This document shows positions 1,521 to 51,795 of a DNA stretch of 64,000 nucleotides, piece by piece; position 1 is the first letter of the stretch; each line of letters begins with the position of its first letter. The stretch is taken from positions 63,931-127,930 of the forward strand of contig ML976777.1 of assembly GCA_010015655.1 (NCBI GenBank), read 5' to 3'. The position numbers were made by a program, and so were the translations under genes. Source of the DNA: Bimuria novae-zelandiae CBS 107.79. Taxonomy: Eukaryota; Ascomycota; Dothideomycetes; Pleosporales; Didymosphaeriaceae. The notes under the pieces were generated by a model. That model was not told the DNA's origin and ran no database searches. It was given only the letters and a program-made list of their open reading frames with translations.

Positions 1521-4517
1521 TACTAATCTCGCCTTATATTTCTGTAATTAATGGTGCTTGTTAAACTTGTAGGTATATACCCACATGTAGTTGAGAATCT
1601 GATAACCTAATGCTCTTATTAGAGCTGCTATAACCTCACTCTAGGACTTTATTTCCTTATGGCTCTGGAGATGAGATCGCTCGGCTTCCTTCTACATATT
1701 ATGGAGTGGGTGATCCTCGAGCTTGCTTCGACATGTGGGTGGCTCTGGGAGTACACTTCGATGTGGTTTCTTGCCCGATGTGATCATTCGTTGAAGCTGC
1801 GCCTTATCGAGAGTCTTGCCCTTGTATTTGCCGCTACTGCCGGCTTTGGTGCCTGCCATAAAGGCTGCGGCCCATGGGCTTGTTTGTAACTGCCCTGTTT
1901 GCACTACTGGCGATAGTTTAAGCTGATTATCTCCTGCTATTAATTATGCAAGGAGTGTTACTGGTGGCGGCGTTAAGGAAGGCGTTGGATATTCGTACCT
2001 AGCTTTCCTATCTTGCCTATACTTAGGAGCTCCTTTAACCTCTTCCTCTAATGCTTCACTAATTGTCTTATCTTTAAAGAAGGACTCGGTGGCTTGCTTT
2101 TATTAAGGTGAGGGAGGTAACTCTACTAATTATACCTAGGCTGCTATTTCTTCCAATATGCTATGCATAAGGTTGTCTATTAGGTCTTTAGTTTTGCCTA
2201 AGAATATAGTATCCTCGTCGAATATTACGTCGCGAGTACTAATTGTCTTTACTAGGGAGGGGATCTATATCCTCTAGATGTTAGTTAATCTGTAGCTAAC
2301 TAGATAGCCTATTCAAGCTTTAGGGTCCAGCCGTTGGAGCTTGCTCTTGCCACGTTTGGTGTCATTAGTTATGGCGAAGGCTTTGCAGCCATAGGCTTTT
2401 AAGTAAGCTTAATTAGGCTTCTTTGGTTAAGTGACAACGCCGTTCTAAAGAGCTACTATTGTAAAGAACACTTCGTATAGTGATTACCATTAATTAGCGT
2501 AGTTTAAGGTTCAATTATAGAGGTAGACTGCAGCTCGGGTGATCTTAGGCTATATCTACTAAAGTAGGTTAAAGTTAAGTCGCATCGCACGCGCTTTCTC
2601 CTTAATTACACCCCCTAAGCGTTTAGCCCCTCTATTTTATGCTTAAGTATCAGGTGCTAAAGGCTTAATTCTAATACCTTATGCTAAGCACTACTTCTTA
2701 ACGTCTGCCTTAATAGAGAAGATCTCGTTATTAGATTTAATTACTTTTACCGTAACATTATATTATACTCTTATAAACAGTATAAAGGTGCTAAGTTACT
2801 TAATAATAGATCGTGCTAGGCGATTATCCTTAAAGTAGAAGTCCTATGCAAAGCTAGAGAATTAATTAGTAATTAGTATTTAGCTCTTCTCTCTTGTTAA
2901 GCTGTCTACTTCGTAGTCGTGAAAATCGATTACGACTCGCTTACCGGGGCCTTTAGTTAGGTCTCTAGCTTGCTAGCGTATTTACCGTTTTAGTTTTACT
3001 TTACTGCAGGCGTTATACTTAATAGTAGGTAGGCCTTTAATCTTCACTCCCTTAGATTGCTGTACGAGATGTTCGAGAGCCTAAGGGCCTGGATAGCTTA
3101 ATCGTTAGTACCAGGTTAATGCATTTGCCTTTTGCGGTCTTCGTTTAGTGCGTGTATTAGTCTTGTGGGTGGCATGCGCAGCTTTAGTAGGAGTACTACC
3201 TACTGGCCTTGTCCTGTGTTCTAGCACCCACTGTCCATGCAACTCTTAAAGTTCTGCTAGTATAGTATTGTCTCTTCTCTTTAGAGTCGTTGGGTCTGCC
3301 CTTATGTCCCACCAAAGGCCTTGCCTCCGGAGTAATCGGAACGATACAAGGTTGCAGAGCAGGTTAGGGTAATAGGTAACATTATTTAGCCATATTGTTC
3401 GATTGCCGCTTGCACTCTATACGTTAAGATAGACGCTTTCGTATCCTTTAATCTATATTTGCGTATTCCTTGCCCATATGAAGTCTCCCGGCGCCGGTGG
3501 CTGGTAGGAGATAAAGCGATTAATGTTATTAAAAATATGGCAAGTTGTGCCTGAATCGAGTATAGCTAAGCATCGTAATAGGTACGTGTTTAGGTTAGTG
3601 TGGACGGATGCGGCTTTAAAGCTCGCTAGGATTTTAGTAATCTTGCGTCCATCTAGTCACTTATTATTAGCCTTAGTAATTCGAGTTGGAGTGGGAGTAT
3701 GCGATAATTTAATTCTAGGTGTTTAAGACTTTAGTCTTTTTACCATTCTCAACTTCTCTTAGAAGTTGGTATTATGTTCTAGCCTAAGCTTAACTAGCTT
3801 TACTATAAGAGGGTTCGCTCTGAACTAGTCTGGCTACTTGTCTAGAAAGGCATAGAAACAGTCTTAAAGACTATGGCGTAGTTTACAAGCAAGGTAATAA
3901 TTGCCACTAACTACTGTTAGCTTAAGGCTCTAAGGCAACTGCTTAAATTTGGTACGTTAACTATTGTTTTATTATTTATAATTCCAAGGTCTTCCCCGAC
4001 TTTTAGATAATACTGCTTCATCCACAAGAGAGGCGTCCCTGTCTATGGCCTAGGTGGATTCACCACCGTCAGCGAGAGATAAACCTGCAGTAGCAAAAGC
4101 GCCCTTTTATTTACCCTTAATCGGGTGCTGCAGGATCATGTGGTCTTAGAAGAGTTTTATTGTATTCTTTCGTAAGACAGCTGCATCTCTGCTTCCATGT
4201 TACTAGAAGGTCGTTACCTATATAGGTGCGACATGGACAACTGCCTTTATAAAGTCTTCTTTAACTAAGTCTAGCCTTTAAAGCTCTAGGACCTAATTAG
4301 TCTCTGCTTCTGTGGCTGCATGATCGTACTCAGATAGCCATGTAGCCTATAATCTAGCTATTCTTATTAGCTTAAGGGCTTCTTAGTATCTTGCCCTTGC
4401 TCGTCGATATTCGTCTTAATAGTCAACCCTAACTGTGATCGTGAGGTTATTGATCTATTGCTTTATTGTACCTCCAGGGATGCAGCAGTTACTCTGTAGG
4501 TGTACAGAGATTGTCAA

Positions 4518-9906: not shown

Positions 9907-11858
9907 TCAGGCCCATTCCGAGAGGTCAAAGTCGAATAGAATACCTCCCATCATGTCGTTATCCAGTAACACATCGCTGGTCGGAAAAGCTTCAGGCCGT
10001 GTAACATTCTGCTTGACTTGGCACAGATCCCTCAGCTTCGTCACCATCTCGTCGTAGAAGCTAGGCAAGCTACGCGGAGGCATTGCGCTCTGCCCGGCGG
10101 TATTCGCACTTTCCATCTTCTGAGCCACGCGTCCGAAGACGTGTGATGGATCCAGAGTCGCGCTTGCCGTCCACATTCCGTATCTTACCCCTGAGATTCG
10201 AGAGTAAATCTTAATAGTGTGGCCGACCATGCCCCAGTAGCCATATGGTAGAGACAGCACTGCAAGGTCCGGTAGGTCGCAGAACGTGTCAATGAGTTTC
10301 TCGATTGTGGAAAGGCAGGCCACGAGTAAGTCGGCACGGAAGGTAGGGTCGGTGAACGAAGGTGGGAAAATCGCGTCTTCGCTCGCAGGCTTGTAGAGGT
10401 GCAGCTGTAGCATCTTGTGTGACATTTGCAGGAGGACTGCTTGGACTGGGTCTAGAGGCGTGAACGGTAACGGCCGCGTCACCTCTTCCTGCAGCACGCT
10501 GATGGTAATTGCCAATGACGGTGTGATTTCAACGCTGAGGGCGTCTCGGTACACCCATCTGTCCACTTTATCGACCAGTTGGATTAGCCGAATAAGTTGG
10601 ACTAGATAAGCATCGTTCGCACTCTCCTGGGACGCTTCAAGGATGCGGCAGCAGTCTTCTGTGTACTGGGTGAACCTCGGTGTTACCATATTATGAAAAC
10701 AATTATTTATTCTATTGCGAGATTAGCATTTGCTTACATTTAGGGAGGTTTGACTCACATAGAAGCCATCCAGAAGACTCCCAGATATGCTCTTCGTTCA
10801 TCGAGTGTTCGGGCTGGAGGCGTCTCATCGCTTATGAGACCCCGCAATGCTCCAGCGCCGATCTTGGACCGCGGTTGGGACTCTTCGTTTAGTCGCAATT
10901 CCGTGACCATTGCCATTGTCAAGTGTATTGGTGTGAGGGATCCATGGCCGAGATGCTGATGGAAATGGCTCCTAGTGGGAACGGTTAGAGTCGATAGTCA
11001 TGTAACTTCGTGATCGTTTAGTAATAAGAACCACGCTGGGATTCCTTTCTAGGAGTGTTGACGTAGTGAGGGAACTCATTTGTGTGTATACGTAATGAAC
11101 ATAAGCTGGATCTGTGCAAAAGGCCACTTCATGATTGTAATAGGCATAGTTCGAAATGCGTACGTACCAGGCAACATACAAGAGGTTCGCTTGCAACGTT
11201 CCTAGACTTCTTTTCCTGTGACTCAGCAATTGGCTAATATCGTTTCCAATAGCCCGAGCCAGCTCCGTCTGTCGATAAGGATCGTTTTGACACGTGATCA
11301 TTATCAAGCACTTGAGTAGTAGTGGCTTCTCGCGTTGTAGTTGCTCGGGGGTCGTTGCAGGCGAAAGAGCCACGAATGGAAACATGGGCGCCATCTCCTT
11401 TACAAACATTTGGACAGGATTCAAATCTTCACTCATGCTAAGGAGAGGGTCGCAAAATTCTTGGCCTGGGTCCAGCAGTAGAGGCAGCTCGGGGATCGGC
11501 GTAGGCTGAGGCTGCATCGAAAACGGAGGTGTCGTCGAGCTCGAAATCTCGGTAGCCACCAGCCTGGACATGGAGTGCACCATCATCTCTAAGCGCTGAA
11601 TCTCCATTTCGTGATTTGTTCGGGCCCGCTTGTTCTTGTGCGCGCCGGGTGTCTGGTCGTGGCATTCTTTGCCCAATCGAACGCATCTAGACAATCGTCA
11701 ACACACGCACCGTACACACACGGACACGGGAAAACGTGTAGGAGGTGGACTTGCCGTTTACAGTTCCGACTCAGCGGGTCAAACTCGCACCGTATCTTCA
11801 ACTTGGCGCACGGTATGCATGCTTTCATCTGCCGCTTCCGGTCGAGGTTTGAAGTCAT
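9907..11858 (-). CDS. Zn2Cys6 transcription factor with fungal MHR domain
   Basis: Four exons on the minus strand. Exon 1 (to 11755) and exon 2 (from 11686) join across a 68-bp intron to complete the zinc cluster: CIPCAKLKIRC, six intervening residues, then CKRC and a last Cys after VRLGKE. The donor is GC (GCAAGT), not GT. A second intron ends at 10956; its donor is either 11034 or 11091, both in phase. A third intron is 10712-10758 (GTGAGT, GCTAAT, AATAG). The rest is the fungal-specific TF middle region (LLYVAWYVRISNYAYYN; LTMAMVTELRLNE; RRAYLGVFWMAS; RFTQYTEDCCRIL). I prefer the ATG at 11858 over 11924 because of its better context. No disabling change is seen. It borders the decayed cluster and may once have regulated it. 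Confidence 0.8.
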
Positions 11859-12564: not shown

Positions 12565-14405
12565 ATGGCACTCTTTGCTCGTCAGATCCGAGTGTTGGCC
12601 GTGAAGACACTCCGCATTACTCTCATTCGGCATTGGGTAGCAACCCCTCTACGTGCATTGGTCGTTCCAATATTCATCGCCCTTTTCCTGTAAGTAATTA
12701 GTGTGTTGATTATCAACTTAAGCGGTTTGAGCTAATGACGCTAGCTCTTTGACGAAGAATTTCCTATCTACGGATTCTCACTATGGCATTGGGACCCCAC
12801 ATCAGATACAAGCGCTCTCGAGCGCCTTTAGCAGGGCCACAGGCAGGCGTAACTCCGTCGTCTTTGTAGCGGCCCCCTCGAATGGCGAAATTAAGCGAGT
12901 AATTGAGACAGTAACAGCCTCGCTCAGCAATCCTAGCATTCAAGTGCGGACTATCGAGCACGAGGCCGAATTGGGCGCAGCTTGCAACGCTTCGATACGT
13001 GGCGCCTCAAAGTGCCTTGCGACAGCTACGATTCACTCTTCTCCGTCGCAGGGCTTGGGCAGTTCCTGGAATTATTCCATCCGCGCAGATACAAATCTGA
13101 GACAAACTTTCCTTGTCGACTCTGATAGCAATGATGCGCAGATCTACATCATCCCTTTACAACATGCTATTGACTCGGCTATCGTGCGCAGCACGGTTAC
13201 GCTGTCAATCCCGATTTATAAGTATCCCTTCGCCTCGGAGACTGAGTCACGACTTCAGCTCAAGGAGCGAGCCAAATTCATGGATATGATCAAAGATATC
13301 TTGGTCACTCCGTCCTATTTTGCGATCAGTTGCCTTGTCTACCAGATGACCGGATTTGTTTCTACAGAACGCGAGATTAGCATGGCAAGACTTCTCGACA
13401 CGATGTTCCCTAATCAAACGCGTTGGCAGCCTCAGCTTGTACGTGTTCTGTCAAACCACTTAGCCTTCACCCTACTTTATTTTCCTGGATGGATCACTAC
13501 TGGGGCGATATTTGGAGCCATTTGTTTCCCTTCAACAAACCTCATCATACCTATTGTGACCCAGGTATTAATGGGGCTATCGATGGTCTCGTATACCTCC
13601 TTTCTGGCTACATCCTTCGTCGCGACACGAAGTGAACGCGTTGATTGCGGCGTGCGACCTTACTAAGAAAGCTCGGGTTATGTCTTCAGCTTTATATGGC
13701 GGCCAAAAACGCAAGCTGCAAATGGCGTTAATGTTTGCAGGTGGTTCTACCGTCTGTTGCATCAACGAAGTGTCTTCTGGCGTGGACCCATTGTCGTGCA
13801 GGAAGCTGTGGGACATTCTACTCGCTCAGCGTGGCTTTCGCTCCATCATACTCTAACAACCCACTTTCTTGATGTAGCTACGTGACTTGACGTCAGAGGT
13901 GGTATACATGGAAGGTGCTACCTGGGTGAACGGACTAGGGACTCAACAAAAGCTCTCCTTCTTCCCTCTCTGCTCAAAAGCAGACTCCTCACTCAACACA
14001 CTCTTTTCTGTAGATGGCAATACAGCTTGTTGTCCCTATATGCCTGCCTGCCTGCTTACACTTGATGAGGTAGATGTACTTGGGGATCGCATTGCCATAT
14101 TGTCGAAAGGACGTCTTGAAGCCGTTGGGTCTTCCGTTGAACTAAAGTATACGCTTGGTTATGGATACAAAGTTCGGATTCCGCGTTCTATTGATAGTCC
14201 TTGATTGGATGCACCATACCGCGATGTGCTTCATGGAGACCATGGCCAAGAGGCCACGTACATTCCTGGAGCACCGAAGGACACCCATAAACCACTTGAA
14301 AGGCTGGAACATGACGGTGTCCCGAATTACGAGGTCAACGGAGCTACTGCGAGCAAAAGTCAGCGCATGTTGGCACGATTGCAAGCGAGGGGATTCACGA
14401 GTTTC
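12565..14405 (+). pseudogene. ABC-A subfamily transporter, decayed
   Basis: Exon 1 (12565-12689) encodes an N-terminal arm and the first membrane segment (ALVVPIFIALFL); a 55-bp intron (12690-12744) leads to a long open exon with the ABC-A extracellular region and further membrane spans to about 13640. There a deletion with a frame change joins the membrane domain to the late nucleotide-binding domain: the Walker A loop is gone. What follows is LYGGQKRKLQMALMF (signature, Ser replaced by Tyr), then Walker B VCCINEVSSG (Asp replaced by Asn) and the D-loop. A further frame change near 13850 and an insertion at 13875-14067 split the H-loop region from DRIAILSKG. The copy ends near 14405 against a P450 fragment. 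It cannot encode an active transporter. Confidence 0.85.
13875..14067. mobile_element. Short insertion in the ABC nucleotide-binding domain
   Basis: CTTGATG occurs at 13868-13874 and again at 14061-14067. Removing one copy plus the 186 bp between them restores the expected Thr-His-Phe-Leu-Asp-Glu H-loop reading. This looks like a small non-autonomous insertion with a 7-bp target duplication. I see no strong terminal inverted repeat, so the class is unknown. Confidence 0.5.
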
Positions 14406-14406
14406 A

Positions 14407-14956
14407 AGATCCATGGTTGTAAGTCAAACACTGAACCATCTTTTGGGATCTGATTCGGCATTGATTGAAAATGCTCCCCGAGTGGAGCAAAATCGTTGAT
14501 GTTAGATTTATGAAAGCCCGGCTTCTTCAGCGAATGCGAAAATTTCCGATCGGGTCCATCTGTGGTAATGAATCCGACTCCGCAGAAAGGCTTCATGATG
14601 TGTAGACGTACCAGTTGGATGACACAGTCTGCGGCATGCTTGGATCATACCGTTTTGATGTTCTCAAGGTGGACAGAGTATATGGCGAGAGAACCGAAGT
14701 TCAGCGCTTCGAATGTGTGCCCATACGTGTCGTAGCGCTGCTGGTGCTCGGTAAGGAAGCGATTCTTGGTCATCACATCGCCGGTTCGCATAAAGATGTC
14801 CAGTCCAAAAATGGGATCTTTGTGTTTGTAACGCGGGGCTTGTTGGCATCCGCGCTGTCGAGCTTTGAGTTGACGAGTCTGAAACACATACACCCGATGG
14901 GGGACGAAAACCGCGATAGCCGTTACGAAAAACACCAACAGTAAAGTGGTCGTCAT
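14407..14956 (-). pseudogene. Cytochrome P450, N-terminal half only
   Basis: From a minus-strand ATG at 14956, a membrane anchor (TTTLLLVFFVTAIAVFV) leads to the CYP52-like segment PRYKHKDPIFGLDIF, and on to GVGFITTDGP and KPGFHKSNINDF, ending at DLQPWILKL near 14407. One TGA at 14645-14647 breaks the frame. The I-helix, ExxR and heme loop are absent: beyond 14407 the sequence belongs to the ABC remnant on the other strand. It is about 180 residues where about 500 are expected. Confidence 0.8.
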
Positions 14957-15960
14957 TCTGGCAATTTCGGGTAGTTTGCCGGACGGCAGAACACAAGATC
15001 GCGTGTGTGACGCACGGGTGTCAGCAACCTTGAGGCGCGGACTGCACTATTGCGGCACAAAAGATCGGTCAAGGCTTTCCGAACATGCCGGTGAATGTAA
15101 AAATCGTATCTCCACACTCTGGAGCTTTTCTTGGTTGCGCGGGCGGACGTTCTATCAGGGTCATCTGTATTTTTCACTGTCACTTTCACTCTGGTCGTTT
15201 TCGGTATACGGACATTTGTTGCTGTCGTGACCCCTGGGCCACACAGATTCATGCTGCTTCTGCCGCTTGCGCCGGTAACGACTCATCCACTAAGGCTCTC
15301 TATACCTGAAGGTACATGTACTCTTTGAAATCCTCGATCCTGCATTCATTTGCGTATAGGAAAATGCGGGCGATGTTGTCTTCATGAGGACCCAGTTGGG
15401 TGGGCTTCAGGTCGTCGTAGTAACAATTGCCCTGTCTGCAGGAGTCCGCTGTTCCTTCTCGTGCAGCTATCGGCGCCTGGGGGCGGGCGCCGAGAGTGTC
15501 ACGTGATCGCATAGCCCCCGGGCCCCACACTCCCGTGATGATATCTCAGTCCCACGACTCCGCTTATGTTGAGAACTCACTGCAATAACACTATCGATCA
15601 TTCGGGAAAGATAGCGGCCGACATAAAGCTTTCCGCAAACGCGGTAGATAAATGAAGTTAGGCGACTGGGGGCTCCAGCTCTGCAAATGACGTCAGAGGC
15701 GCATCCTGCGTAACTCCAGCTTCCCAACAAGCAATGCTCACTCCACTATCTCACCATGGGAGGCACATCAACATTGATCTTTACGAGTTAACAGTTTCAT
15801 CTCTGCTGGAAATTCTCAACGAAATGCTTGGCAGTAGCGTTTGCCGACCCGGTCGAGCTCACTGTGCCACTATGAGTGCGAAGATGTTTTCTATCCAAAA
15901 TAATAACTGGATTGATAAGCCGAAGATGACAGCAAAGATGCCTACATATCGCAATCGCGT
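14957..15960. other. Unrecognised stretch inside the decayed cluster
   Basis: There are several short frames on both strands but none with a recognisable domain. It separates an N-terminal P450 half from a C-terminal P450 half, and is probably rearranged or highly decayed DNA. Confidence 0.4.
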
Positions 15961-16440
15961 GCATGGTCCGCTAAATCTCAAGCTCCTCCAGTGCTCCCCA
16001 CGTGGCGTGAAGACAAGATTAGGTCCATCATTGTCCACAACGAGGCTCTCATAAATCTGGAACTCTTCCACTCTCTCACGCCCATCCTTCTTCCTAGGAT
16101 CCCCTTCTCCCAGCTTCCCAGCTGCTCCTGGCGCTTTCTTGAAGTTGAAGTACCACAGCGTCCTTGCTATTGTAAGACTGATTTCGAGATATGCCATAGG
16201 CTTCCCCACACAAGAGCGATCGCCGAGTGAGAACGGCGCCCATGATCGTTTCATCGAAGTAAGAAGCTCCTGATCTTTGTCTGTTTCCACGGAAGGGCTG
16301 TCCGCAGGCAGCCATCGTTCTGGGCGAAAGCGGAAAGGCTTGGGGAAGTATTTAGCATTGTGCTGGGACTGTAGGCACTGATAGCGACCTGCGTTCCTGG
16401 AAGAATAAAGTGCCCGTCGATATCCAAGTGGGGCCGGTCC
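15961..16440 (-). pseudogene. Cytochrome P450, C-terminal half with heme loop
   Basis: The minus strand reads IDGHFILPGTQVAISAY, then needs a one-base frame change to continue as QHNAKYFPKPFRFRPERW, and on to the heme loop FSLGDRSCVG (FxxGxRxCxG intact) and the L-helix YLEISLTIARTLW. It ends near a typical NLVFTPRGE tail. No N-terminal half precedes it; the upstream sequence is a rhodopsin-domain gene. It resembles benzoate-hydroxylase or isotrichodermin-type P450s more than the CYP52-like N-half at 14.4-14.9 kb, so the two fragments probably come from different genes. Confidence 0.8.
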
Positions 16441-16449
16441 GTTGGGTTC

Positions 16450-17560
16450 TGATAGTCATCGCGAAAATTTGTAAGCTCAACCTGGCTATCCTGTGTATCC
16501 TTCCCATCCTCACCAAGTCGATATCCTAGTGCACCACGGCGCGGTTTGATAGGTGCACTTCCAATCGTGGGGGGCCATGCCCCATGGTTTGAGTGTCTGG
16601 AAGTCGAAGGCTGAGATAATCGTGCCCCGGAATGGAACAAAGCAATGGCTTGAGATATTATACCACTTCCAGTAAGTATTTTGGGAAACGCCGGAACTGA
16701 GAACACAAGATAGAGACCGGTAGCTTCACCCATAATCCATAAAAAGGCTTCCCATAGCTTGTAAGTTGTATCAAAAGGTTTGGTGACATCGCCAGGATAG
16801 TCTTGCACTGCGGTTGCGTAAAGGCGACCTACAGCGGCCACATTGACCCTATGTTCATACATTTCAGCCTGGCAAACCATGCGAGAGGAGGGTGCTTGAA
16901 ACCGGATAGGAGAGGAAGACTGACAACAAGCCCACCGCGAACACCAATTGAAAGGCCGACTTGTCGGTTGCGACTCATTTGGAGTCTCCATATGATGATT
17001 CTTTGGGGGAGGAAAAACATGAATAGGTCGATAATGACGTTGAAAGCAGCGTTAACGACATCTCGGGTTTTGTGATCGAAGCACCGACCAGCAACCCAAA
17101 AGTACCACGCTTTGCGGAGCGGCAGGCATGCAAAGAAAGAAGAGATGAATCCAGCACCGTACAGTCCAATATTAAGTATCATGAGAGCAACACTTCATCG
17201 ATAAAAGGTGCAGTGCGTGCGATCCAGGACGAATAGTCGGTTCCATTCGAGAAGTATTACGGTCTTCAGACACATCATAGCGGAATAACAAATGATAACG
17301 ACTAGAGCGATCTAGAAGCGTTAGAGTAAGCGCTCAACGTTTCAGCGGACAGGAGAGGTTTGAAGTGACCTGTTGTACTTACATAGCCAGGGTCGATTAA
17401 GACATAGCCGTAGAGGTCCCACTGATGTACGTAGAAACCTATGCGATGGTGGAAGTAAAATTAGGACCATAAGAATCCAGTGAAGCCCATCTATTCCACG
17501 TAAGAGACGATAAAGGATGCCTAGGATCAGTACATAGACGTACAAGAGACGCTAGGCCAA
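16450..17560 (-). pseudogene. Pth11-like rhodopsin-domain membrane protein, decayed
   Basis: The clearest part (17182-16829) has the family features: ASFFACLP-like Cys after a membrane span, RKAWYFWVAGRCFD, NAAFNVIIDLFMFFLP, IIWRLQM and GLSIG. After a frame change it continues with YKLWEAFLWIMGEATGLYLVFSVPAFPKIL (given here as two pieces, KLWEAFLWIMGEAT and VFSVPAFPKIL) and a soluble tail to about 16450, where it runs into a P450 fragment. Upstream, 17400-17560 holds broken pieces of the first helices. Such proteins are seven-helix membrane proteins, some acting as surface sensors. At least two frame changes are needed, so it is a pseudogene. Confidence 0.7.
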
Positions 17561-17572
17561 CATCTAGAATGA

Positions 17573-20538
17573 ATGAATAGTCAGAGTTTTGGTATTCTTG
17601 ATTGCATTGCAGGCAAACATTCACAGTCTTCAGGATGCATTTTCTTCGCAAGCACCTTGTCTCTCGAAACCCGCATGCACACGTTCCGCGACTTGATCAC
17701 ACACGCGCAACCAAATCTGAGTATGCTTGAGGTTGGAGTCGGTACTGGAAGCATGACTCGCAGCATTTTAGCTGCCCTGCAGTCATTTGAGAAAGATGGT
17801 GGGCAAACACGATTTGCAGAGTACGTGTTCACAGACGTGTCTCCATCCTTTTTCAAAGATGCTAGGGAAATCTTCGACAAATTCCGCGATCGGATGCTCT
17901 TCAAAACGCTAGATCTTCAAGAAGATCTACCTTCGCAAGGGTTCGACGATGCAAGCTACGACCTCATACTTGCGGGCTCTGTTTTGCACATTACATCAGA
18001 TCTACTGGTTACGCTGAGGCGTCTACGTAGGCTTCTGCGGCCCGGTGAAATTTTGCTGTTCACGGAGACAACTAGCCTCGACAGCGCTTGTATCAACGTG
18101 GCTTTCGGGACACTGGAGGGTTGGTGGTTCGGAAGTGAAGAGTGGCATCAATACAGTCCACTCGCCACAGAAGGACGTTGGGATGAATTGCTCCACGCAT
18201 CAGGGTTTTCCGGGGTGAATCTCTTGACGCGGGACCATACAGCTGACATTTGCCACCTGACAAGCTGCATGGTCTCCAAGGCACTCGAGGTACCAGACTG
18301 ACACCTTAGTATCATCAACAATGGCGACGCCGATGACCTAAATGCAGGCTTGGAGTGTTTGGTCAATCTTAACATGGAGGTGCAGATTGTCTTGGCCAGC
18401 AGAATTCGTGCACAATATCCTGAGAGTCGAATCACGACCATTACCAAACCTGATGAACAACAGCGTGCCTCCAGTTCACAACGCATCCTCGTATCACTCC
18501 TCGATGTCAGTGCTTCTCAATTCACCGAGGACAACGAAGCGACTTTCGATCAAGCCTGGAGCGTTATCCAAAGTGCATCCAGAATCTTGTGGGTTTCCTC
18601 TCTTAAAAATGCCGACGCCAACATCATTCCGCAGTCTTATATGGCGGTCGGCATGTTTCGAACACTCAGAAACGAGTACCCTGACAAACGCATCGTTACC
18701 ATGTGCATCGAATGCGACATCGAGGCTCCAACACATTTCGTCTCACAACTCATAAACAAGTGTTTTCTCGGAGCTACCACATGGGAAGAAGTGGAATTCA
18801 TAGTGCGCGATAGGAACCTCACCATTGGTCGCATTATGCAAGAGACGAAACTTGACGAAGAACGGCTTTCTCGTGTGGTCCCAGGTAGAGTGCTTGAACC
18901 ATGGGCTTCTGGGCCGCCACTTCGTCTCGAAATCGAGACACCTAGCATGTTGAACACGTTGCGGTTCGTCGAAGATGTTAAGGAAGATCTAGGACCCGAT
19001 GAGGTTGAGATCAATGTTGTCGCCTGGCCTATCAGCTTTCACGATGCTTTTGTTGCGATGGGTTGTCTAGCTCCCTTCGGCCGCTTTATCAACATTGGCA
19101 AAGCGGACGTTATAGCCAACTCATCACTTCCGATGGCAAGCTTTGCAAAGAACGTTAATTTTGCTTCTGTAGACCTACACTACATCCTCTTGACCAACCC
19201 AAAGCTGACTCGCCAACTCGTGGAAAAAACTCTGAGTCTTACTACGGATCCTACTGTCGGTGGGCCCTTACCCCTTCACCTGTTCCCGGTTTCGCAAACA
19301 GAAAAGGCATTTCGCTATATACAGAGCAGCAAGAACAGTGGGCGCATTCTGGTCACCATCGACGAACGTGAGGCGGTTCCGAAGCACTCACGCAAAGAAG
19401 TGCGTGGCGATTTGATCCTCATGCTTCATATATTATTGCAGGAGGACTAGGAGGCTTAGGACGTACAATAATTCGATGGATGGCCACCCGGGGGCTAAGA
19501 AATGTCATCATTCCTTCCCGTTCCGGGGCGAGTTCACCCATCGCCAAAGAACTAGTTTCGACTCTGGAGAGCAAGGGTATCAAGGTTGTCACGCCATTGT
19601 GCGACGTAGCTTGTGCTACCGCCTTGAATACGATGCTTCAAGAGTGCTCTAATATGCCTCCCATCCGTGGTTGCATGAGCCTTTCCATGGTGCTTCAAGA
19701 TGCTCTGTTTGACAACATGAAGCATGCTCAATGGACGCTAACTTCGCGGAGCAAGGTGCAAACGAGTTGGAATCTACACACGCTACTCCCCCACGACTTG
19801 GACTTCTTCATTATGTTCTCATCGCTCGGTGGAGTCTACGGTACAGCATCGCAGAGTATCTACAATGCGGGTAATACATTCCAAGACGCGCTGGCTCGAT
19901 TGCGTGCCAATGTCGGCGGCTTTGGCACATCCGTATCGATCGATTTAGGATGGATGAAAAGCGTGGGCATTGTTTCGGAGCGCTTGGACTATCGTCGCAC
20001 ACGCGAGTACATACGGGATATGAAGCCTATCGACACCGAAGGCCTGCTTGCGGCGCTCGAGCACTATTGCGACCCATCTTTGCCGCCGCCCGACGCGGAC
20101 CACAGTCAGATCATCGTCGGCATGACAACGCCACAGGACCTTAATGCACGTGGCGAGAACATACCACTCCATCTCAAGCGGCCTCTGTTTGCGCCGTTTG
20201 ACGTCGTCTGGTCGAACGCCAATGCCGCACGTGCAAGCCCCAAGGCTCTATATCAGATGAACTTGTCACATCAGTTCCAGGAAGCCGATAATTTCCAGGA
20301 GTGCAGCGAGATCGTCGTCAAAAAGATCCGGAATAAGCTTCCTGACGCACTGGCGAAGGAACTCGAGGACATCGATCCCGGGGTCAATCTTTCAGGCCAT
20401 GGCGTTGACTCGTTGATGGCGATGGAATTGCGCAACACCATTTCTTACGAATTCAAGGTATCGGTTGCGGTGTTCGAGATTATGGACGCGAAGGATTTAT
20501 ATGGAGTGGGTATGCTCGTGGCGCAGAAGTCGCTGTGA
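17573..20538 (+). pseudogene. Highly reducing polyketide synthase, truncated: MT-ER-KR-ACP only
   Basis: A type I fungal reducing PKS lacks KS, AT and DH entirely. Domains in order: C-methyltransferase (about 17690-18290, SAM motif LEVGVGTGS), a linker, a partial enoylreductase (about 18890-19400), ketoreductase (about 19410-20110, FSSLGG and catalytic Tyr in QSIYNAGN), and an acyl carrier domain whose attachment Ser is intact in GVDSLMA (Ser codon 20410-20412). Breaks: an in-frame TGA at 18299-18301, an ER deletion near 19055 that removes the NADPH-binding core (GPDEVEINV and then directly CLAPFGRF), and a frame change near 19415 before the KR Rossmann loop. The left break lies near 17573 against the Pth11-like gene on the other strand. 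The former product is not deducible. Confidence 0.88.
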
Positions 20539-27242: not shown

Positions 27243-30200
27243 ATGCGCCAGTTTACTCATGTCTCGATCTCGCCGTGGGCAGACCCCTACTCCTCGGGGC
27301 CCGATGCCGGCAAGAACCTCTATGCACCCGCCAGTTCACAGCAGCCGGTATATCGGCGAATAGTACTTCCTCCCGCACCCATCTTCTATCATCCGGGCGT
27401 CGAACAGGTCGTTGGGGAAGAGAGCGATGACGATGAAGCCGAAGAGGGTACGTAGTGGTGATGGAGCGCTTGTTCAGCTGTTCCACTAATACTAGGAAGG
27501 ACAATCCGGGGTAGCCCTTGATGATCCCATAGAAGAGGCTACAGAGACACCTCCACCCACAGCGCCCGAAGCACCACCTGTACCCGAGCCGCCGAGCGAA
27601 GGTGTCCCAGAGGGTGCACCAGCGGATCAACCAACCAGTTCCGATCCACCGGTTGACACAGTCCCTGAGGCAAGCACAAGTACGGATGAAGCAGCTGCGC
27701 AACCTGAAGACCAGGAAGGGACGTTGGATGCTGGGGCAGATAATGCCGGCGACGATGCCAAGCCTGAAGATGTCAAAGACGAACCGCCTGGAGGAGATGC
27801 CGGCGATGTAGAGACCGTGCCCTCGCCTACCGACACAGATGCCTCACCACCTGCAGCAGAAGACCCTAGTCCGACTGAGGATGTAACGGATAAGGTCGAA
27901 GCACCTGTGGAAGACAGTCCTGCTGCACCACCACCCGAGCCCGAGGCTCCAGAACCTGAGCCCCCAGAGCCACAGGCCGTTCAGGAAGAGGCCGTGACGC
28001 CCATCGAAACCGACAAGGCTGCACCAGTGCCTCCCATTGACACAAATCAAGAGCCTGCCGAGAAGAGTGGTGAGTCCGAGGAGGCTGCTCAAGAGCCCCC
28101 AATGTCCCCGAGTACAAAGTCTGTGCATTTCTCCCCTGACGTTAAAGATCCAGACGCCGCTAGCATTGGCAGCAAGAAGAAGAGTATCGCCAAGAAGATT
28201 GGCAAAGGCAAGGCCACTGGTTTCGTTCGGATCAGAGACCCTGTTCCGGTTCGACCTTCGTCTCCAAAAGAGGAGAAGAAGCCCGCGAAGGACGACAAGA
28301 AGAAACCTGGCAAGGACAGCAAGAAGAAGGAGAAGACTTCGAGTGCCCCCAAAGAGGAACATGCACCTGTCGATAAGGGCACCCCACCGCCTGCATCTTC
28401 AAAGAAGAAGCTCAGCAAGGCAGAAGAGCGCAAGAAGAAGAAGCACGATGAGAAGGACAAGAAGTCCAAAGGCAAGAAAGGTCGGAAGGGCAGCGATGCT
28501 TCTCACTCAGAGGATGGCCATGCACTTGATGGTGATAACGCATCCGAAGCACACGACAGCTCCGTCGCCGAGTCCACTGCGCCGCCGCCCTCAGGGGATG
28601 TGCAACAAGCGCCTGAGGCTCTAGAAGAGCCGACCGCTGAACCCACTACTAATGCCCAACCTGAAGAGGGTGCTAATGTTCCTCCCGAAGAGAGCCAAAA
28701 ACCCACCGAGGTACCAGGTGAGCCTGCCGTCGACCCACCTGTTGATCAGCAGCCAGAAGAGTGTCCAACCGAGGCGAATCCGACAGGCGAAGAAGGCCCA
28801 GCTGCGGACGACGGTCCTCCCTCGGAGGAGAGCGGGGCCGCAGAGGAGGTCACAGCGGCACAGGAAGACACGCCTGTTGAAGAGAACGTCGAGCCGGCGG
28901 AGAGCGAGGCGCTAGAAGAAAGTGCACCGCTAGCTGAGAGCGCCTCCACAGAAGACAGTGCGCCTGCAGAATACAATGTACCCGCAGATGAAAATGCACC
29001 GGCCGAGGGTGCTGAAACTGCATCAGTGGAAGCCAGCGCACCCGCAGACGAAAGTACTCCCACAGACAAAAATGCACCCACAGGCGAGAGTTCACATGTA
29101 GACGAAAGTGTACCTGTAGACGAGAGTGCACCCGCAGACGACAGTGTACCCGCAGAAGACACTGCACCCGCAGAAGATACTCAACCCGCAGAAGATACTC
29201 AACCCGCAGAAGATACTCAACCCGCAGAAGATACTCAACCCGCAGAAGATAGTGCACCCGGAGATGAACCTGCCCAAGCGGATGACGGTGTAACGGAAAG
29301 CGACGGCCAACCGTCCGAAGACAGCGTGCCGGCCAACGAAAGTGCTTCTGTCGTGGACACTACCTCTGCCCCCGCCGACGATCCTCCTACCGAAGTCGCG
29401 GTATCAGACTCGAGTACAGTAGAGACTGTGACTGCAGAACCTGGTGAGCCTGTAGAAACCCCCAAGGAAGAGGCCCTGCCAGACAGCCCCCCGGGCGACG
29501 AGAATTCATGCGTGGAGCAGCCGTCCCAAGAGGTTGATCATCAAGAAAGAATGCCCAAAGACAATGTTCCTATGGAGTCTTCGCCCGAAGAAGTCTCTGA
29601 CGAAGCGCAAGCGGGTGAGGTGAATGTTGCTGAGGAGAGCGACCCTGTGGAGCGTCAGTCTTCTGATGTGGCAGAGGTACAAGAAGGTGACCCAGAAGAG
29701 AATCAGTCTGAAGTTTCGCCGCCAGATGAAGCTCTTCCTGCAGCGGAGGCTACCTCTGAGGAGTCCCACGATGTCGCTGTGATTGTCCCAGAAGATTCTG
29801 AAGGTGCAGTCGCAGAGGCGGAGACTCAAAGTGATGCCACGGTGGCAAGTGAGGCTGATATCGACGAAGCCCAAGGAACTAGCACCACTGATGTACCTTC
29901 GGAGCAATCCGCACCAGAGGCATTGGAAATGGTTCTGGAGAAGCCTGTCGCTGAGGCTCCAGCAAGTCCAGATGAGCTGACCGATGCGACACCATTAGAG
30001 GCAACGAGCGAGGTATTGGAAGGTCCACCAGGTCACCCGAATGATGCCTCGACAAACGTCGAGGCTGAGGCCGCCACTGAAGTGGTAGCTCACGATGGGG
30101 ACAATGACCCAAATGAAGAGCCCGCCGACGAGGATCTTGTCAGTGCTGACGGTACCGTGAACGAGGACGCTGTCGTGGATCAGCCCGGCTTTGACGACCA

Positions 30201-33200
30201 TGCTCAAGACGAGGGAGCGCTACCCGCGCTTGTTGAATACGCGCACGATGCCGATGATGCTGCTGATTCTCCAATCGAAGAAATCAGTGCAAGTCCTGCT
30301 GACCATAACGATGAAGAAGCCGCCTGTTTGAACGACCTTGACAACGTAGCTGAAGAGTCGGTAGTCCCATATGAGCCTGACACTCAAGGTGAAGCTTCAA
30401 AAGACGAACCTCCTTCAGCAGCAGATGTTTCACAAACTGAGAATGAGCCTACCGCAACCGACCAGCCATGCACCGAAAATGAGCCTACCGCAGACAGTGA
30501 ACCCACAGGAAGTGCCGACGGTCCATTGGAACCTCCGATCAACGTCAACGAGGCTGAGGACGCCGACGAGGGTGAAGCGGCAGCATCGGAAGAGCCCACG
30601 GGATCGGAAGAGGTCGCAGAATCGGAAGAGTCCACAGCATCAGAAGAGCCCACAGCATCGGAAGAGCCTACAGCATCGGAAGAGGCCACAGCATCGGAAG
30701 AGCCCGCAGCATCGGAAGAGCCCGCAGCATCGAAAGAGCCCACAGCATCGGAAGAGCCCGCAGCATCGGAAGAGCCNNNNNNNNNNNNNNNNNNNNNNNN
30801 NNNNNNNNNNNNNNNNNNNNNNNNNNNNNNNNNNNNNNNNNNNNNNNNNNNNNNNNNNNNNNNNNNNNNNNCCACAGCATCGGAAGAGCCCGCAGCATCG
30901 GAAGAGCCCGCAGCATCGAAAGAGCCCACAGCATCGGAAGAGCCCGCAGCATCGGAAGAGCCTGCAGTCCCAGAAGAGCCCAAAGCCGCGGAGGAGCCCA
31001 AAGCAGCGGAGGAGCCCAAAGCAGCGGAGGAGCTCGAGGCAGTCGGCGAGCCTGAAGCACCGGCTGAGGTTGTAGCGACGAACGCGTCAATGTCAGCAGA
31101 CGAATCTGACCTTGGTGTATCTGCGTCAGCAGATAAACCCACGGGAGAGAGCAAACCTCCAGTAATCGAACACGAACCGGCCGCAGAAAGCATTCCAAAC
31201 CCTGCTGATCTTGCTATTGTCGAGAAGATCCTGAGAGCTCAATCAACAGCGAATGAAGAGTCCGAAGCCCTCGAGCCAGCAACAGCAACGTCCGAAGTTG
31301 CCCCAGCAGAGGCCTCGAACAATGAAGATTCTGCTGACATAGGCGACTCAGGCGGTTGGAACGAGGAATCTAGCGTTGATCTCAGTCTTACTACAGGGAC
31401 TAATGAAGCTAATGCTGATGTTGCGGATTCCCACGGAACGCAACAGGCCGGAGACGCAAGCCCAGAAAACGCACCAAACGTCATTGATAGCGGTGGAGAG
31501 ACACAGGCAGATGCACAAAACGAACCCTCAGAAGCCGAGCTTTCCAGTAATGAGGTAGTTGATGCCGGCGAAGACACAGCCGTGCAAGACGATGGACAGA
31601 CTGGGCCAGAGCCGCATGAAAAAATGCCTCTGGAAGGCTCGGACACCAAGGACCTGAACGAGCTTGATTCGGAAATAGGTAGTTCTACTTCAACACCAAC
31701 TGAGGTCGACTCGCCTCCGAGCACTTCAGATCCGGAGGCACGTGCTTCACATGATGAGCTCAGCGAGGCAACATCAGATTCCAGTCAAGGTGAGCTTCCT
31801 GGTAAAACGGAGGACGTTGGGAGCGAAGAGTCCCTCGTTGCACCCGACCTGGAGCGCGCGACAACGCAAGAAACCACCACGGTTGGCGAAATGACAAGTT
31901 TTCCGAACGAGGTACCCGCTAAGAAAGACCCTGAAGAAAATACAGACGGGGTACCAGATCCAGAGACCGTGCCTCAAGACCAACCTCATCATGATCATGA
32001 TGATCCAGATGAACCCGATGACAACACTGGCGTAGATGCAACGCCAGAAGCTCCGACCGTGGAAGGTGACAACATCGACTGTCACGAGCCTGTGTGCCAG
32101 CCGGGCGACACGATCTGTGCCTCGGTATCCGATGGTGACATCGCAGCTGAAGATGCGGTGAAAGATGTTGATGAGGCTATAGACTCTGGAAAAGCTGCTG
32201 TAGACCCTGACGAGAGCCAGGCTATCGAAGAACACTCTAAGGTGAATCAGGAAGAGGACAGTGCCGTTGTGTCAAATCTTCATGTTCCCTCAGATGCGCC
32301 TGCGAACGAACCATCAGCACAGGAATCCACTGATAGCGCCGTATCAGAAGAAGCTCCCGAAAATGTTGAATCCGTATCTGACCCTGCCGCTGCTGACAGC
32401 GCGGAGGCTGCTAGCGAGAGCCACGCTGGGGAGGTTGGACCCCTGGACACGGATGCAAGTTCTGATCTTCTCAACTCTACAAGCACAACTAGTAGTAGCG
32501 GTGGCCCGGAAGTCAAGGACAGCGCTGAGACAGATGTGACTAACCTACCACTGGAAGACCTTGGTAAGAGTTTTCCCTTTCTATTCATCACATGTTTCAG
32601 GGCTTGTTTGCCACTACTTAGCGTTCGACTAACCATAGAATAGAAGGCGATGCAGAAGGCGTCCCTCCCAATGATGCGCAGGACAACGCGGCGAACGAAT
32701 CAGAGGAGCTGAACGCGCCCGAAACAGAAGCTGTTGATGACAATGTCGAGAGACAAGAAAGCGAGGCTATGGACAATGGCTCCTCACCAGACCCGGAAAC
32801 AAATATGTCGACGGATGGTGAGCCACAAGCGTCTTCGGAACAAGAGACTTCACAAGTTGCGGCAGATGCGGAAGGTGTCGGTGAGCCAGAATCTCCAGAA
32901 CAGGACAATGGTGGAGGGACCCAGCAACTAGCGACGGATGAGGCTGCTGTGGTGCAAGCATCGGATGCGGTGATTGTGAAGCCTGCGTCTCAAGAATCCG
33001 TACCTGAATCTCTCGATCAAAGTGGTGAACTCGATCCTGCTCCAGATGCGTCGCAGGAGCTTGAAGGACCCGAGCAGCCGGAACTCAACGACGAACCACC
33101 TGACGAACCGCTCCCCTCCGAGGAGGGCCAACCTCCGGGCGAAGCGAACGTAGCTGCTGAGGATGTTACTAAGGCACAAGACCCAATTGCCGAAGCGCCC

Positions 33201-35999: not shown

Positions 36000-37116
36000 C
36001 GAATTTCTTGCTCTAATGATTTTACAGTATGGCGAACGGATGGCATTGGGCACAGAAGGGTGGGTCTTCATTGAACGGCGTTTGGGAAGCGATATATCAC
36101 GGGTAGTTTCTGTTTTGGAGTGTTTCGGTTAACGGAGTCAGGGTGGTATATGTGTATATGTACGAGTGTATGTGGCATGAGGCTTGAGATTGTTTTCAAA
36201 TAAGGTTTAAGTAGGATCCCAATTTACGAATCTACAATCTACCTCCTTTAAGAAACCTTTCTGTTGCGCTGGTGTACGGTCCTGTCTCATACGCCCATTA
36301 GAGGTTCGCGACTGTCGGGTTATCACGGTCACTGCGCCACAAAGCTCGATGATCGTCTGCGACACACACGGGGCCCTTTGTTAATAGTTGGCGCAAATGC
36401 AGGCGGCTAAAAATATATACTTAGCGAAAAAAAAAGGCAAAAACTAGAGAGTGTCTAGAAACTCAGCTTTCGCTTGGTTTTTTTGTTTGGCATATTATTT
36501 ATGACACGTTAGCCGAACGTGTAGCTTTAGATTATAGACGTGAGCTTAAACGTCTGGGTGCCGCTAATTTGGTGAAGTTTGGAAAACACCAATTACGCTA
36601 ATAGTCGTAGAGTTCGATTGCACGCAGGCGGAAAGTAACATATATATACTACTAGAAAACCGTGTGTCTCCAGACCTGGGATACTTTATAGACTTCGGTT
36701 ACTGTCTGGCATGTAAAGGCGTTAAAAGTGAGGTGGGTGACCAGTTTGAAATGGCAGGTGCACTGCAGTTTAAGTCGCGACTTCCATTCTGGGTCCGCTC
36801 GAAGTTTTCTGCACCTCGGGAAGTGCTCGTAGGTTCTCTCACACGGTGGGCTTGTCTTAGCGAGTGGTAATTCTCTGCTGGTAGATTGGAATTGGCAGCC
36901 GCGGGCAGACCTGCAGTTTTTCGTATTCTATGATTATTATGCGTCTACTTATTGTTGCAACAGCGCGAAGCTATTCACAAAGACATAACGATACCGAAGG
37001 TACTACGAACATCTACGCTGCTCAAACATGTATGCGCTCGCACTATCTGCTTTGTATCTAAAGTCCCATTGTGTTTCCACAGGATAGGTAATGAAACGTG
37101 GGATTGAGGTACGTTA
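36000..37116. other. Intergenic with a dispersed repeat copy
   Basis: This holds the 3' flank of the giant gene, an AT-rich stretch (36400-36660) and copy A of a dispersed repeat family (36612-36788, annotated separately). No gene is recognised. Confidence 0.5.
36612..36788. repeat. Dispersed short repeat, copy A
   Basis: Shares ordered blocks with copies at 44.7 and 63.5 kb: GTTCGATTG (36612), an ACATATATACTACTAGAAA-like block (36638), and GGTGGGTGACCAGTTTGAAA then GGCAGG (36732-36758), ending near ACTTCCATT (36779). Confidence 0.6.
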
Positions 37117-49353: not shown

Positions 49354-49719
49354 CCATGCAACGTACTAACTTTGACGCGCCGCATCTCTATTAATAGAGA
49401 TCTAATTAAGGCAGTAATTACAGCAATTAAATTATAAAAGCTAAAAGAATTCTTTTTATATAAAAAAGTTATAAAAAAATATAGCATTATACTTTTTATA
49501 TTAACGCGTTAGTACTAAGGCGTTACGTAAGCGCGTGTAGATACTAACTTTATATATTAAAATTTTAGTCTATAATAAGAATTAGAGCTTTTATAATATA
49601 TTAAATATTTTACTAAACGTAGCCTTCTTATATAGTAAATAATATAAAGCGTTACCTTTACTATAGCTAATAAGACTATTAGCTTATTATTAGCTAGTAT
49701 TAATAGTAATTACTATAAA

Positions 49720-50480
49720 GCTAATTCCCTAGCTAAATATAAGCTTTACTTTAAGCTCCTACAGCGAAAGATTAGGCAGTATTAGATCGAGACTTAGTAT
49801 ATATATAATATAGACGAAAAAGACTGCCTGCTTGGCATCACCTCCCGCTTAAAGAGGATCTTTGATAGGCCTCTATACGAGAGCAAGGCAGTAAGGCAAG
49901 CTATCTAAGATAGCAACCGTGAATAGATATCGATTATTGCTTATATATGCGTTAACGGATCTACCCTAGATCTAGCTCTAATCTATTAGGCCACCTCTAC
50001 GGATATATAATTAAGTTAGATGAAGGACCTTAATCCTTAACACTATTAGATCTTTATTATAGTATTAGAATTTAATAATATAAATAAATAAATAAGCCTT
50101 ATATAGCTTTAATAGGTGTTTAATTGCCTTATAAAGTTAATGGCTAAATAATTATATTAACTATTAATTCTTAATAACTAGGGATCTTACGTTATTATAG
50201 ATTTTATAAATTTTTATAGTTATAATAAGATCCTATTAGCTATTTATTTACTATATTTAATCTATACGCTATAGTCTCTTAATATTTATATATTTAAGCC
50301 TCTATTAATAGCGTATTTAAACGAGCTATTCGCCTTTTTATAAAATAGCCTAAGAATAGCCTTTATTACTAGAAGAGACTTCTTTAGCCTAATTTAAAAG
50401 GTCTAGGTTAGTACTATAAGGCAGCTATTAATATTTTAGATCTTTAAGTCTATAGGCCTATTACCTCTATATTTAGAGGC
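49720..50480 (+). pseudogene. Fot1/pogo transposase (DDE_1) remnant
   Basis: Plus-strand translation, ignoring stops, reads YNIDEKDCLLGITSRLKRIF (about 49807-49866), matching the DEKGFLLG region at the first catalytic Asp of DDE_1 transposases, then VRQAI and SNRE around 49893-49925. Further on, IYIFKPLLIAYLNELF (about 50288-50335) and ITRRDFFSLI (about 50369) match the conserved FKPL...Y..EL and K.DFF..F blocks. Many stops; no functional protein. Confidence 0.8.
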
Positions 50481-51785: not shown

Positions 51786-51795
51786 ATTGCATTGA

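What the first reader, a model, noticed from the sequence alone, without database searches (positions are those of the whole stretch)
12565..20538. Relic secondary-metabolite cluster: transporter, two P450s, membrane sensor and PKS all broken by deletions
Seen: five adjacent remnants (ABC-A, P450 N-half, P450 C-half, Pth11-like, MT-ER-KR-ACP PKS) on alternating strands, with breakpoints placing one gene directly against the next, next to an apparently intact Zn2Cys6 regulator. Known: such families commonly co-occur in fungal biosynthetic clusters. Inference: one cluster decayed by serial deletions and rearrangement rather than by RIP alone, since composition is normal here. It offers a case of pathway loss, with an orphaned regulator.
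Basis: partly seen in the sequence, partly recalled or inferred. Interest (0 to 1): 0.75.

Follow-up and report, generated by a model that had tools for sequence, protein, structure and literature searches.

The report
Decayed polyketide gene cluster in a fungus
A fungus carries the crumbled remains of what was probably one polyketide-making gene cluster, cut up by several deletions and one mobile-element scar; this is an ordinary kind of pathway loss, and the intact regulator next door may not belong to it.

Summary
The remnants are real. The regulator matches Bimuria novae-zelandiae CBS 107.79 at 100%, so that is the organism. Alignment to relatives shows an ABC-A transporter, two different P450s, a Pth11-like receptor and a highly reducing PKS. 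All are truncated; each boundary fits one deletion in a collinear gene row, so no rearrangement is needed (inference). One break was missed: a 188-bp element with TG...CA ends and an exact 5-bp target duplication (most simply a solo LTR) inside the transporter's first ATPase domain. The gene pieces show no RIP-like composition. Nonsense mutations are few (3 in 1,821 homologous codons, about 1.6% neutral change; 5 if two just outside are added, 2.7%). The LTR copy has 1.6-2.7% private change, so decay looks recent. In the own genome, Pth11 and P450 homologues lie beside PKS loci more often than a uniform expectation; ABC-A homologues do not. This supports one former cluster without proving it. 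The 'orphaned regulator' is not supported: its named relatives are Paraphaeosphaeria and Karstenula, whereas the PKS's nearest are Massariosphaeria, Thozetella, Dendryphion and Phaeosphaeria. Its intactness is unsurprising (P about 0.38). Verdict: a well-resolved case of a known kind. No intact syntenic cluster could be examined.

The parts
9907..11858 (-). Zn2Cys6 regulator, apparently intact, 4 exons, 546 aa (NCBI BU23DRAFT_51024 starts 22 aa further upstream); first intron is GC-AG
   Evidence: model; same splicing in P0001; Zn_clus 18.3 bits, below the 21-bit cut-off; CX2CX6CX8CX2CX6C read directly
11008..11128 (.). dispersed short repeat (39 other places listed at E <= 1, 81-87%; lower bound) inside intron 2 (10972-11167) of the regulator; ends not defined
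   Evidence: three-copy alignment
12565..13618 (+). ABC-A transporter: N-terminus and first membrane domain (an intron about 12691-12746 is read by eye)
   Evidence: L032/L033 tblastn
13619..13619 (.). junction J1: internal deletion of about 237-238 codons with frame change
   Evidence: L032 res 301->539, L033 281->520
13620..14204 (+). ABC-A first nucleotide-binding domain, interrupted by the LTR; open frames end with stops at 13854-13856 and 14202-14204
13868..14065 (.). 188-bp element 13873-14060 (TGTAG...TTACA) with 5-bp duplication CTTGA at 13868-13872 and 14061-14065: solo LTR, most simply
14205..14345 (+). probable ABC-A linker after NBD1 (identified from recall only)
   Evidence: reading frame; no Pfam match
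14346..14398 (.). junction J2: ABC-A 3' part against P450-1 3' part (convergent genes, one deletion); left limit read by eye
   Evidence: end of P450 homology at 14399
14399..14986 (-). P450 no. 1, N-terminal third only; in-frame stop at 14645-14647
   Evidence: L059, L060, L061 matches; stop
15862..16427 (-). P450 no. 2, C-terminal third only; frame change near 16366
   Evidence: Pfam; L053/L054 46-49%; 16427-16368 piece
16428..16440 (.). junction J3: Pth11 tail against P450 no. 2, inside one open frame 16254-17051
   Evidence: start of P450 homology; Pth11 tail read by eye
16441..17450 (-). Pth11-like receptor, N-terminus missing; stop at 17195-17197
   Evidence: Pfam; L063, L065 matches 17299-16838; outer limits read by eye; stop
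17451..17638 (.). junction J4: Pth11 5' part against PKS 5' part (divergent genes, one deletion)
   Evidence: PKS homology starts 17639-17666
17639..19063 (+). HR-PKS: methyltransferase and following region; in-frame stop 18299-18301
   Evidence: P0125-P0128 tblastn
19064..19072 (.). junction J5: in-frame loss of about 172-175 codons of the enoylreductase
   Evidence: L022, L024; P0125
19073..20538 (+). HR-PKS: end of ER, frame change at 19387, then KR and ACP in one open frame to the stop at 20536-20538

Best explanation
The segment is the relic of one highly reducing polyketide cluster in the order ABC-A(+), P450-1(-), P450-2(-), Pth11-like(-), PKS(+). It died recently and mainly by deletion. 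Five deletions account for the junctions: one inside the ABC-A, one removing the 3' ends of the convergent ABC-A and P450-1, one from the Pth11 tail into P450-2, one removing the 5' ends of the divergent Pth11 and PKS (all of KS, AT, DH), and one inside the ER. A retroelement also inserted into the ABC-A ATPase domain and later collapsed to a solo LTR. Shown: the fragments, which domains are missing, the element and its duplication, no RIP-like composition in the gene pieces, low density of nonsense mutations. Inferred: common membership in one cluster, the order of events, single-step origin of each junction. The Zn2Cys6 gene is more likely a neighbour with its own history than the cluster's regulator.
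For: Domain truncations measured against own-genome paralogues (whose own intactness is not established in every case) and against full-length NCBI proteins P0125-P0128. Co-location in the same genome: a P450-2 homologue and an MT-type PKS reading frame about 0.8 kb apart at C23; within 15 kb of 19 PKS loci (merged by me from the 25 non-self matches) lie 2 of 23 Pth11 homologues (expected 0.17) and 3 of 38 P450-2 homologues (expected 0.28) (positions). LTR: 20 of 30 copies examined have exact 5-bp duplications and none has 4, 6, 7 or 8, which the script allowed. Timing: 3 stops in 1,821 codons, u 0.016 (95% 0.003-0.048), or 0.027 (0.009-0.064) with the two stops just outside the spans, against 3 (of 20 copies) to 5 (three-way) private changes of 187 in the LTR. 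No RIP-like composition in the gene pieces. Flanks include conserved genes.
Against: No intact syntenic cluster was seen in any species; homologue searches give no context. ABC-A paralogues (0 of 2) are not near PKS loci, and P450-1 homologues only 1 of 3 within 25 kb and 0 of 3 within 15 kb. Co-location tests were not corrected for gene density or my choice of distances. The nonsense counts are too small to compare one piece with another. The inserted element itself has TA/AT 1.57 (188 bp), so RIP of that element is not excluded. The 14205-14345 piece and the outer ends of Pth11 are identified by eye. Assembly error at a junction cannot be excluded without reads.
Confidence: 0.65

Rival explanations
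1. Remains of two or more unrelated gene sets: the PKS (with P450-2 and Pth11) as one cluster, and ABC-A plus P450-1 (perhaps with the regulator) as older residents, brought together only by deletion of what lay between.
For: ABC-A homologues in the genome are not near PKS loci (0 of 2); the regulator's species distribution differs from the PKS's; regulator and ABC-A share a divergent intergenic region of about 0.7 kb.
Against: No unrelated gene was recognised between 12565 and 20538 in the pieces scanned (the last covering six frames' worth of open stretches in 14.9-16.05 kb); this is weak, since small or fast-evolving genes would be missed.
Confidence: 0.23
2. One reading: one cluster including the Zn2Cys6 gene as its pathway regulator, now orphaned. 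(Overlaps with the best explanation, which leaves the regulator out.)
For: Adjacency and divergent orientation to the ABC-A; Zn2Cys6 genes occur in such clusters (PMC3538735 section 5 describes bik5 in the bikaverin cluster).
Against: Regulator hits: own species, Paraphaeosphaeria sporulosa, Karstenula rhodostoma and one unnamed protein, 4 in all. Among the best 120 of 2,423 PKS hits no named row is from those genera (about a dozen rows carry no species name), and none of the four nearest PKS species appears among the named regulator hits.
Confidence: 0.25
3. Local assembly artefact joining pieces of real genes.
For: No reads available; several junctions in 8 kb.
Against: In-frame stops in four different pieces (14202, 14645, 17195, 18299), an element with perfect target duplication, no N run in the region (the only one is 30777-30871), and no near-identical second copy listed elsewhere in the 77-Mb assembly (best paralogues 45% PKS, 38% ABC).
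Confidence: 0.04

Closest known systems
Bikaverin relic cluster of Botrytis cinerea grey strains (Campbell et al. 2012 as cited in PMC3538735; passages and section 5 read; the 2012 paper itself not held)
   Same: PKS cluster with the backbone gene lost and other genes pseudogenised, while further cluster genes remain.
   Different: There the functional homologue in Fusarium and rare functional strains are known, and the Zn2Cys6 gene is described as part of the cluster; here no intact syntenic cluster is known and the regulator is doubtful. Here a retroelement scar is one of the lesions.
Cluster loss polymorphisms in Aspergillus fumigatus (PMC5711037; passages read)
   Same: Deletion of most of an ABC transporter gene and pseudogenised PKS clusters as common, presumably mostly neutral events; transposable elements involved in cluster change.
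   Different: Population polymorphism in 66 strains there; a single assembly here, with five inferred deletions in one locus.
LovF/MlcB-like highly reducing PKS (names given by automatic annotation)
   Same: KS-AT-DH-MT-ER-KR-ACP type domain content in the closest relatives P0125-P0128 (precomputed Pfam lists).
   Different: Here about 38% of the protein remains (about 960 of 2,572 residues of P0125), without KS, AT, DH and most of ER.
Solo LTR of a short-LTR retrotransposon (hallmarks recalled)
   Same: TG...CA ends, 5-bp target duplication, many single copies; no two of the 40 listed places lie within 40 kb of each other.
   Different: No internal region or full-length element was found, so the family is unassigned.

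Membership tests
Highly reducing type I PKS with C-methyltransferase | MT, ER, KR and ACP domains in that order with closest relatives that are full HR-PKS | tested here: met
   (ER by Pfam below its cut-off, 23.5 against 27 bits, but aligned by tblastn); tree clade UFB 100 / SH-aLRT 99 with four full-length HR-PKS (25 rows: the relic and 24 of 220 hits chosen by me)
Highly reducing type I PKS with C-methyltransferase | KS, AT and DH present | tested here: not met
   residues 1-1434 of P0125 have no match in the window below E 1.8, nor the same part of P0126-P0128 below E 0.38: a pseudogene of this family, not a functional member
ABC-A transporter | NBD sequence closest to ABCA proteins among solved structures | tested here: met
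   13 ABCA sequences first, E 4.9e-18 to 2.1e-14, next ABCG1 at 4e-4
Cytochrome P450 (two genes) | N-terminal piece and C-terminal haem-loop piece from different P450 families | tested here: met
   C piece Pfam PF00067, best L053/L054 E about 1e-33; N piece best L059/L060 E 4e-16 to 1e-14, and those loci match the C piece only at E 0.001-0.006
Pth11-like receptor | Fung_rhodopsin domain | tested here: met
   PF20684 55.6 bits, positions 97-184 of 237; features of the lost N-terminus cannot be tested
Single secondary-metabolite gene cluster | the genes occur together, intact, in another genome | not testable with these tools
   the genome collections offered are prokaryotic; P. sporulosa and others are seen only as proteins
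Single secondary-metabolite gene cluster | homologues of the member genes co-locate with PKS genes | tested here: inconclusive
   favourable for P450-2 and Pth11, 1 of 3 at 25 kb for P450-1, 0 of 2 for ABC-A
Pathway regulator of this cluster | shared phylogenetic distribution with the PKS | tested here: not met
   named hits only; capped candidate lists
Solo LTR | TG...CA ends and constant-length target duplication | tested here: met
   20 of 30 copies, all exactly 5 bp; in 10 the script found no ends
Solo LTR | full-length element with two such LTRs and an internal region | tested here: inconclusive
   none among 40 listed places, but the list is a lower bound; two weak opposite-strand pieces lie near the C32 copy

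The most novel reading that the evidence does not exclude
The cluster fell apart in one burst: a retroelement insertion into the ABC-A gene and several deletions within a few kilobases happened close together in time, for example through repair of breaks linked to the element, and not as slow independent decay. The similar ages of the LTR copy (1.6-2.7% private change) and of the nonsense load (1.6-2.7%, wide limits) are compatible with this, but the deletions themselves cannot be dated.
Probability: 0.08. Interest if true: 0.5.

Novelty: new member of a known kind. Interest (0 to 1): 0.3.

Why it matters
It is a readable case of pathway loss caught early: the order and size of deletions, an insertion scar and a low load of point lesions can all be measured at one locus whose gene pieces lack RIP-like composition, while other stretches of the same window have it. 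It also shows how easily an intact neighbouring regulator is assigned to a dead cluster by position alone, when species distribution points the other way.

Tried and rejected
Rejected: RIP as the main cause (the 188-bp element alone reads TA/AT 1.57). Rejected: the two P450 pieces as halves of one gene (different best paralogues, wrong order). Rejected: regulator broken by the repeat found inside it (the repeat lies in an intron that NCBI's own model also removes). Not pursued to a claim: that repeat as an introner-like element; the intron does not fold better than its shuffles (z 0.04), its ends are undefined, and of the introner paper PMC4457414 I saw only the abstract and outline. Rejected: KR-ACP fragment as a clearly selected mini-protein; its long branch (0.67 against 0.24-0.45) without any stop is interesting, but the first Met is residue 37 of the open frame and the estimated neutral time is too short for a stop to be expected.

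Led nowhere: Pfam on the ABC and P450-N pieces and on seven open stretches at 14.2-16.05 kb; PDB search with the ABC membrane piece and P450-N piece; Rfam and tRNA scans; repeat search inside the region (only short two-copy families); paper searches on Bimuria (17 papers, listing only), Paraphaeosphaeria clusters (10, listing only) and decayed clusters (listings, with passages of three papers read). I did not find this locus in those listings; no claim is made that it is absent from print. One search was largely wasted: the length window (about 708-2254 aa) excluded full-length PKSs.
Full report
Setting. The window is part of contig C122 of a 77.4-Mb, 191-contig assembly. The regulator at 9907-11858 is 100% identical to NCBI BU23DRAFT_51024 of Bimuria novae-zelandiae CBS 107.79, a Dothideomycete (Pleosporales, Didymosphaeriaceae). 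Flanking reading frames match MAT1, a prefoldin-type gene with DUF3835, gamma-tubulin complex components, PRELI and a class I aminoacyl-tRNA synthetase (W/Y) (6 of 10 frames with a match), so the locus lies among conserved genes.

The remnants. Family scans of stop-free pieces give a P450 C-terminal part, a fungal rhodopsin (Pth11-like) part, a methyltransferase and KR plus ACP. The ABC pieces were silent in Pfam. The NBD piece is nevertheless clearly ABC-A: the 13 best solved-structure sequences are all ABCA proteins, E 4.9e-18 to 2.1e-14, and two own-genome paralogues align along it. The P450 N-part is recognised only by own-genome P450 loci.

What is missing. Paralogue L032 aligns residues 12-301 to 12755-13618 and 539-616 to 13620-13853, so about 237 codons are gone at 13619 with a change of frame; L033 gives 238. 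Against the closest full-length PKS (P0125, 2,572 aa) the relic keeps residues 1435 to about 1905 and about 2081-2571. KS, AT, DH and the start of MT have no credible match in the window (best E 0.38 over four relatives), and about 172-175 codons of ER are missing in frame near 19064-19072. P450-1 keeps its N-terminal third, ending at 14399. P450-2 keeps its C-terminal third, starting at 16427 with a frame change near 16366. The Pth11 gene lacks its N-terminus. Whether the own-genome paralogues are themselves intact was not established: L022, L024 and L033 matches cross stops, L032 does not.

Geometry. ABC-A and P450-1 are convergent and have both lost 3' parts. P450-2 lost its 5' part and Pth11, just upstream of it on the same strand, ends at the junction. 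Pth11 and PKS are divergent and have both lost 5' parts. Each junction therefore follows from one deletion in a collinear row; inversion or translocation is not needed. This is inference from orientation, not observation of the ancestor.

The insertion. The DNA search of the own genome showed that 13.87-14.07 kb is a dispersed repeat: 39 other places are listed (a lower bound, since 40 of 171 candidates were scored). In 30 copies with flanks (30 of the 40, the window's included), 20 show exact 5-bp duplications around TG...CA ends and none shows 4, 6, 7 or 8, which were also allowed; in the other 10 my end-finding rule found none. The window copy is 13873-14060 with CTTGA on both sides. These are the hallmarks of an LTR (recalled). 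No two of the 40 places lie within 40 kb of each other (two weak opposite-strand pieces near the C32 copy appear only), so it is most simply a solo LTR.

Age. Across 1,821 codons in homologous spans there are 3 in-frame stops, about 0.016 neutral changes per site (95% 0.003-0.048). Two further stops (13854-13856 and 14202-14204) lie just outside the counted spans; with them the estimate is 0.027 (0.009-0.064). The LTR copy has 3 changes seen in no other of 20 copies, or 5 in a three-way count with its two nearest copies, of 187. The two clocks agree within wide limits, so the insertion may be among the first lesions. The relic's KR-ACP branch is longer than its sisters' (0.67 against 0.24-0.45); I read most of that as divergence from before the loss.

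Composition. The gene pieces have TA/AT 0.44-0.79 and negative composite indices, against 1.57 and +1.11 at 49.5-52 kb; the 188-bp element itself reads 1.57 and +0.38, which may be its own make-up or slight RIP.

One cluster? In the same genome, 3 of 38 P450-2 homologues and 2 of 23 Pth11 homologues lie within 15 kb of 19 PKS loci (expected 0.28 and 0.17; Poisson P 0.003 and 0.013). At 25 kb the same counts have expectations 0.46 and 0.28, and 1 of 3 P450-1 homologues is counted (expected 0.04). ABC-A homologues: 0 of 2 at either distance. At C23 a P450-2 homologue and an MT-type PKS reading frame are about 0.8 kb apart. This favours a former cluster without proving it; the distances were chosen by me and gene density was not corrected for.

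The regulator. It is a coherent gene: 546 codons, three introns, the first GC-AG, splicing as in the NCBI model. Its second intron (196 bp) contains a second dispersed repeat with 39 other places listed. At the relic's lesion rate a gene of this size would be free of stops with P 0.38, so intactness says little. The search with it found 4 proteins: itself, Paraphaeosphaeria sporulosa (60%), Karstenula rhodostoma (62% over 81%) and one unnamed (37%). The KR-ACP search found 2,423 proteins, of which the best 120 are listed, headed by Massariosphaeria phaeospora (58%), Thozetella sp. (56%), Dendryphion nanum (56%) and Phaeosphaeria sp. (51%), with no named Paraphaeosphaeria or Karstenula row (about a dozen rows carry no species name). 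The shorter-window search lists a Paraconiothyrium brasiliense PKS at 44%, a likely family relative (recalled), which falls outside the relic's clade. The named sets do not overlap. Limits: both searches scored only about 8,000 candidates, odd-length gene models would be missed, and a secondary loss in those two genera would look the same.

Compared with what is known. Decayed polyketide clusters are well described: bikaverin in Botrytis cinerea grey strains (PMC3538735, passages and section 5; Campbell et al. 2012 not held), many loss alleles in Aspergillus fumigatus including loss of most of an ABC transporter gene (PMC5711037, passages), and pseudogenised metabolite genes in Cladosporium fulvum (PMC3510045, passages). 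This locus is a new, well-resolved member of that kind. What is added is the anatomy (five inferred deletions, one retroelement scar, gene pieces without RIP-like composition), two roughly agreeing clocks, and evidence against the adjacent regulator as part of it.

Noticed in passing
window 11008-11128: Short dispersed repeat (39 other places listed, 81-87%) inside intron 2 of the regulator; could be a SINE-like or introner-like element, ends not defined.
   Followed up: partly
window 38518-39345 (+): Another P450 with three in-frame stops (1 TGA, 2 TAA), PF00067 E 1.5e-36 when read with X at stops; introns were not ruled out.
   Followed up: partly
window 56670-57827 (+): DIOX_N and 2OG-Fe(II) oxygenase pieces in one frame separated by a single stop codon at 57081-57083; pseudogene or unrecognised intron.
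   Followed up: no
window 16254-17051 (-): Open frame of 266 codons running across the Pth11/P450-2 deletion junction, a chance chimeric reading frame.
   Followed up: partly
window 49500-52000 and 2001-4000: AT-rich stretches with strong RIP indices (TA/AT 1.57 at 49.5-52 kb; 1.7-1.9 at 2-4 kb), while the relic's gene pieces have none.
   Followed up: partly
window 28200-36000: Long repetitive open frames with 18-bp tandem repeats and an N run at 30777-30871.
   Followed up: no
L054 (C23 about 688.4-691.8 kb): Neighbouring P450 and MT-type PKS reading frames, paralogous to two of the relic genes; the PKS match there crosses four stops, so intactness is not established.
   Followed up: partly
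window 11687-11754 (-): First intron of the regulator appears to be GC-AG.
   Followed up: partly
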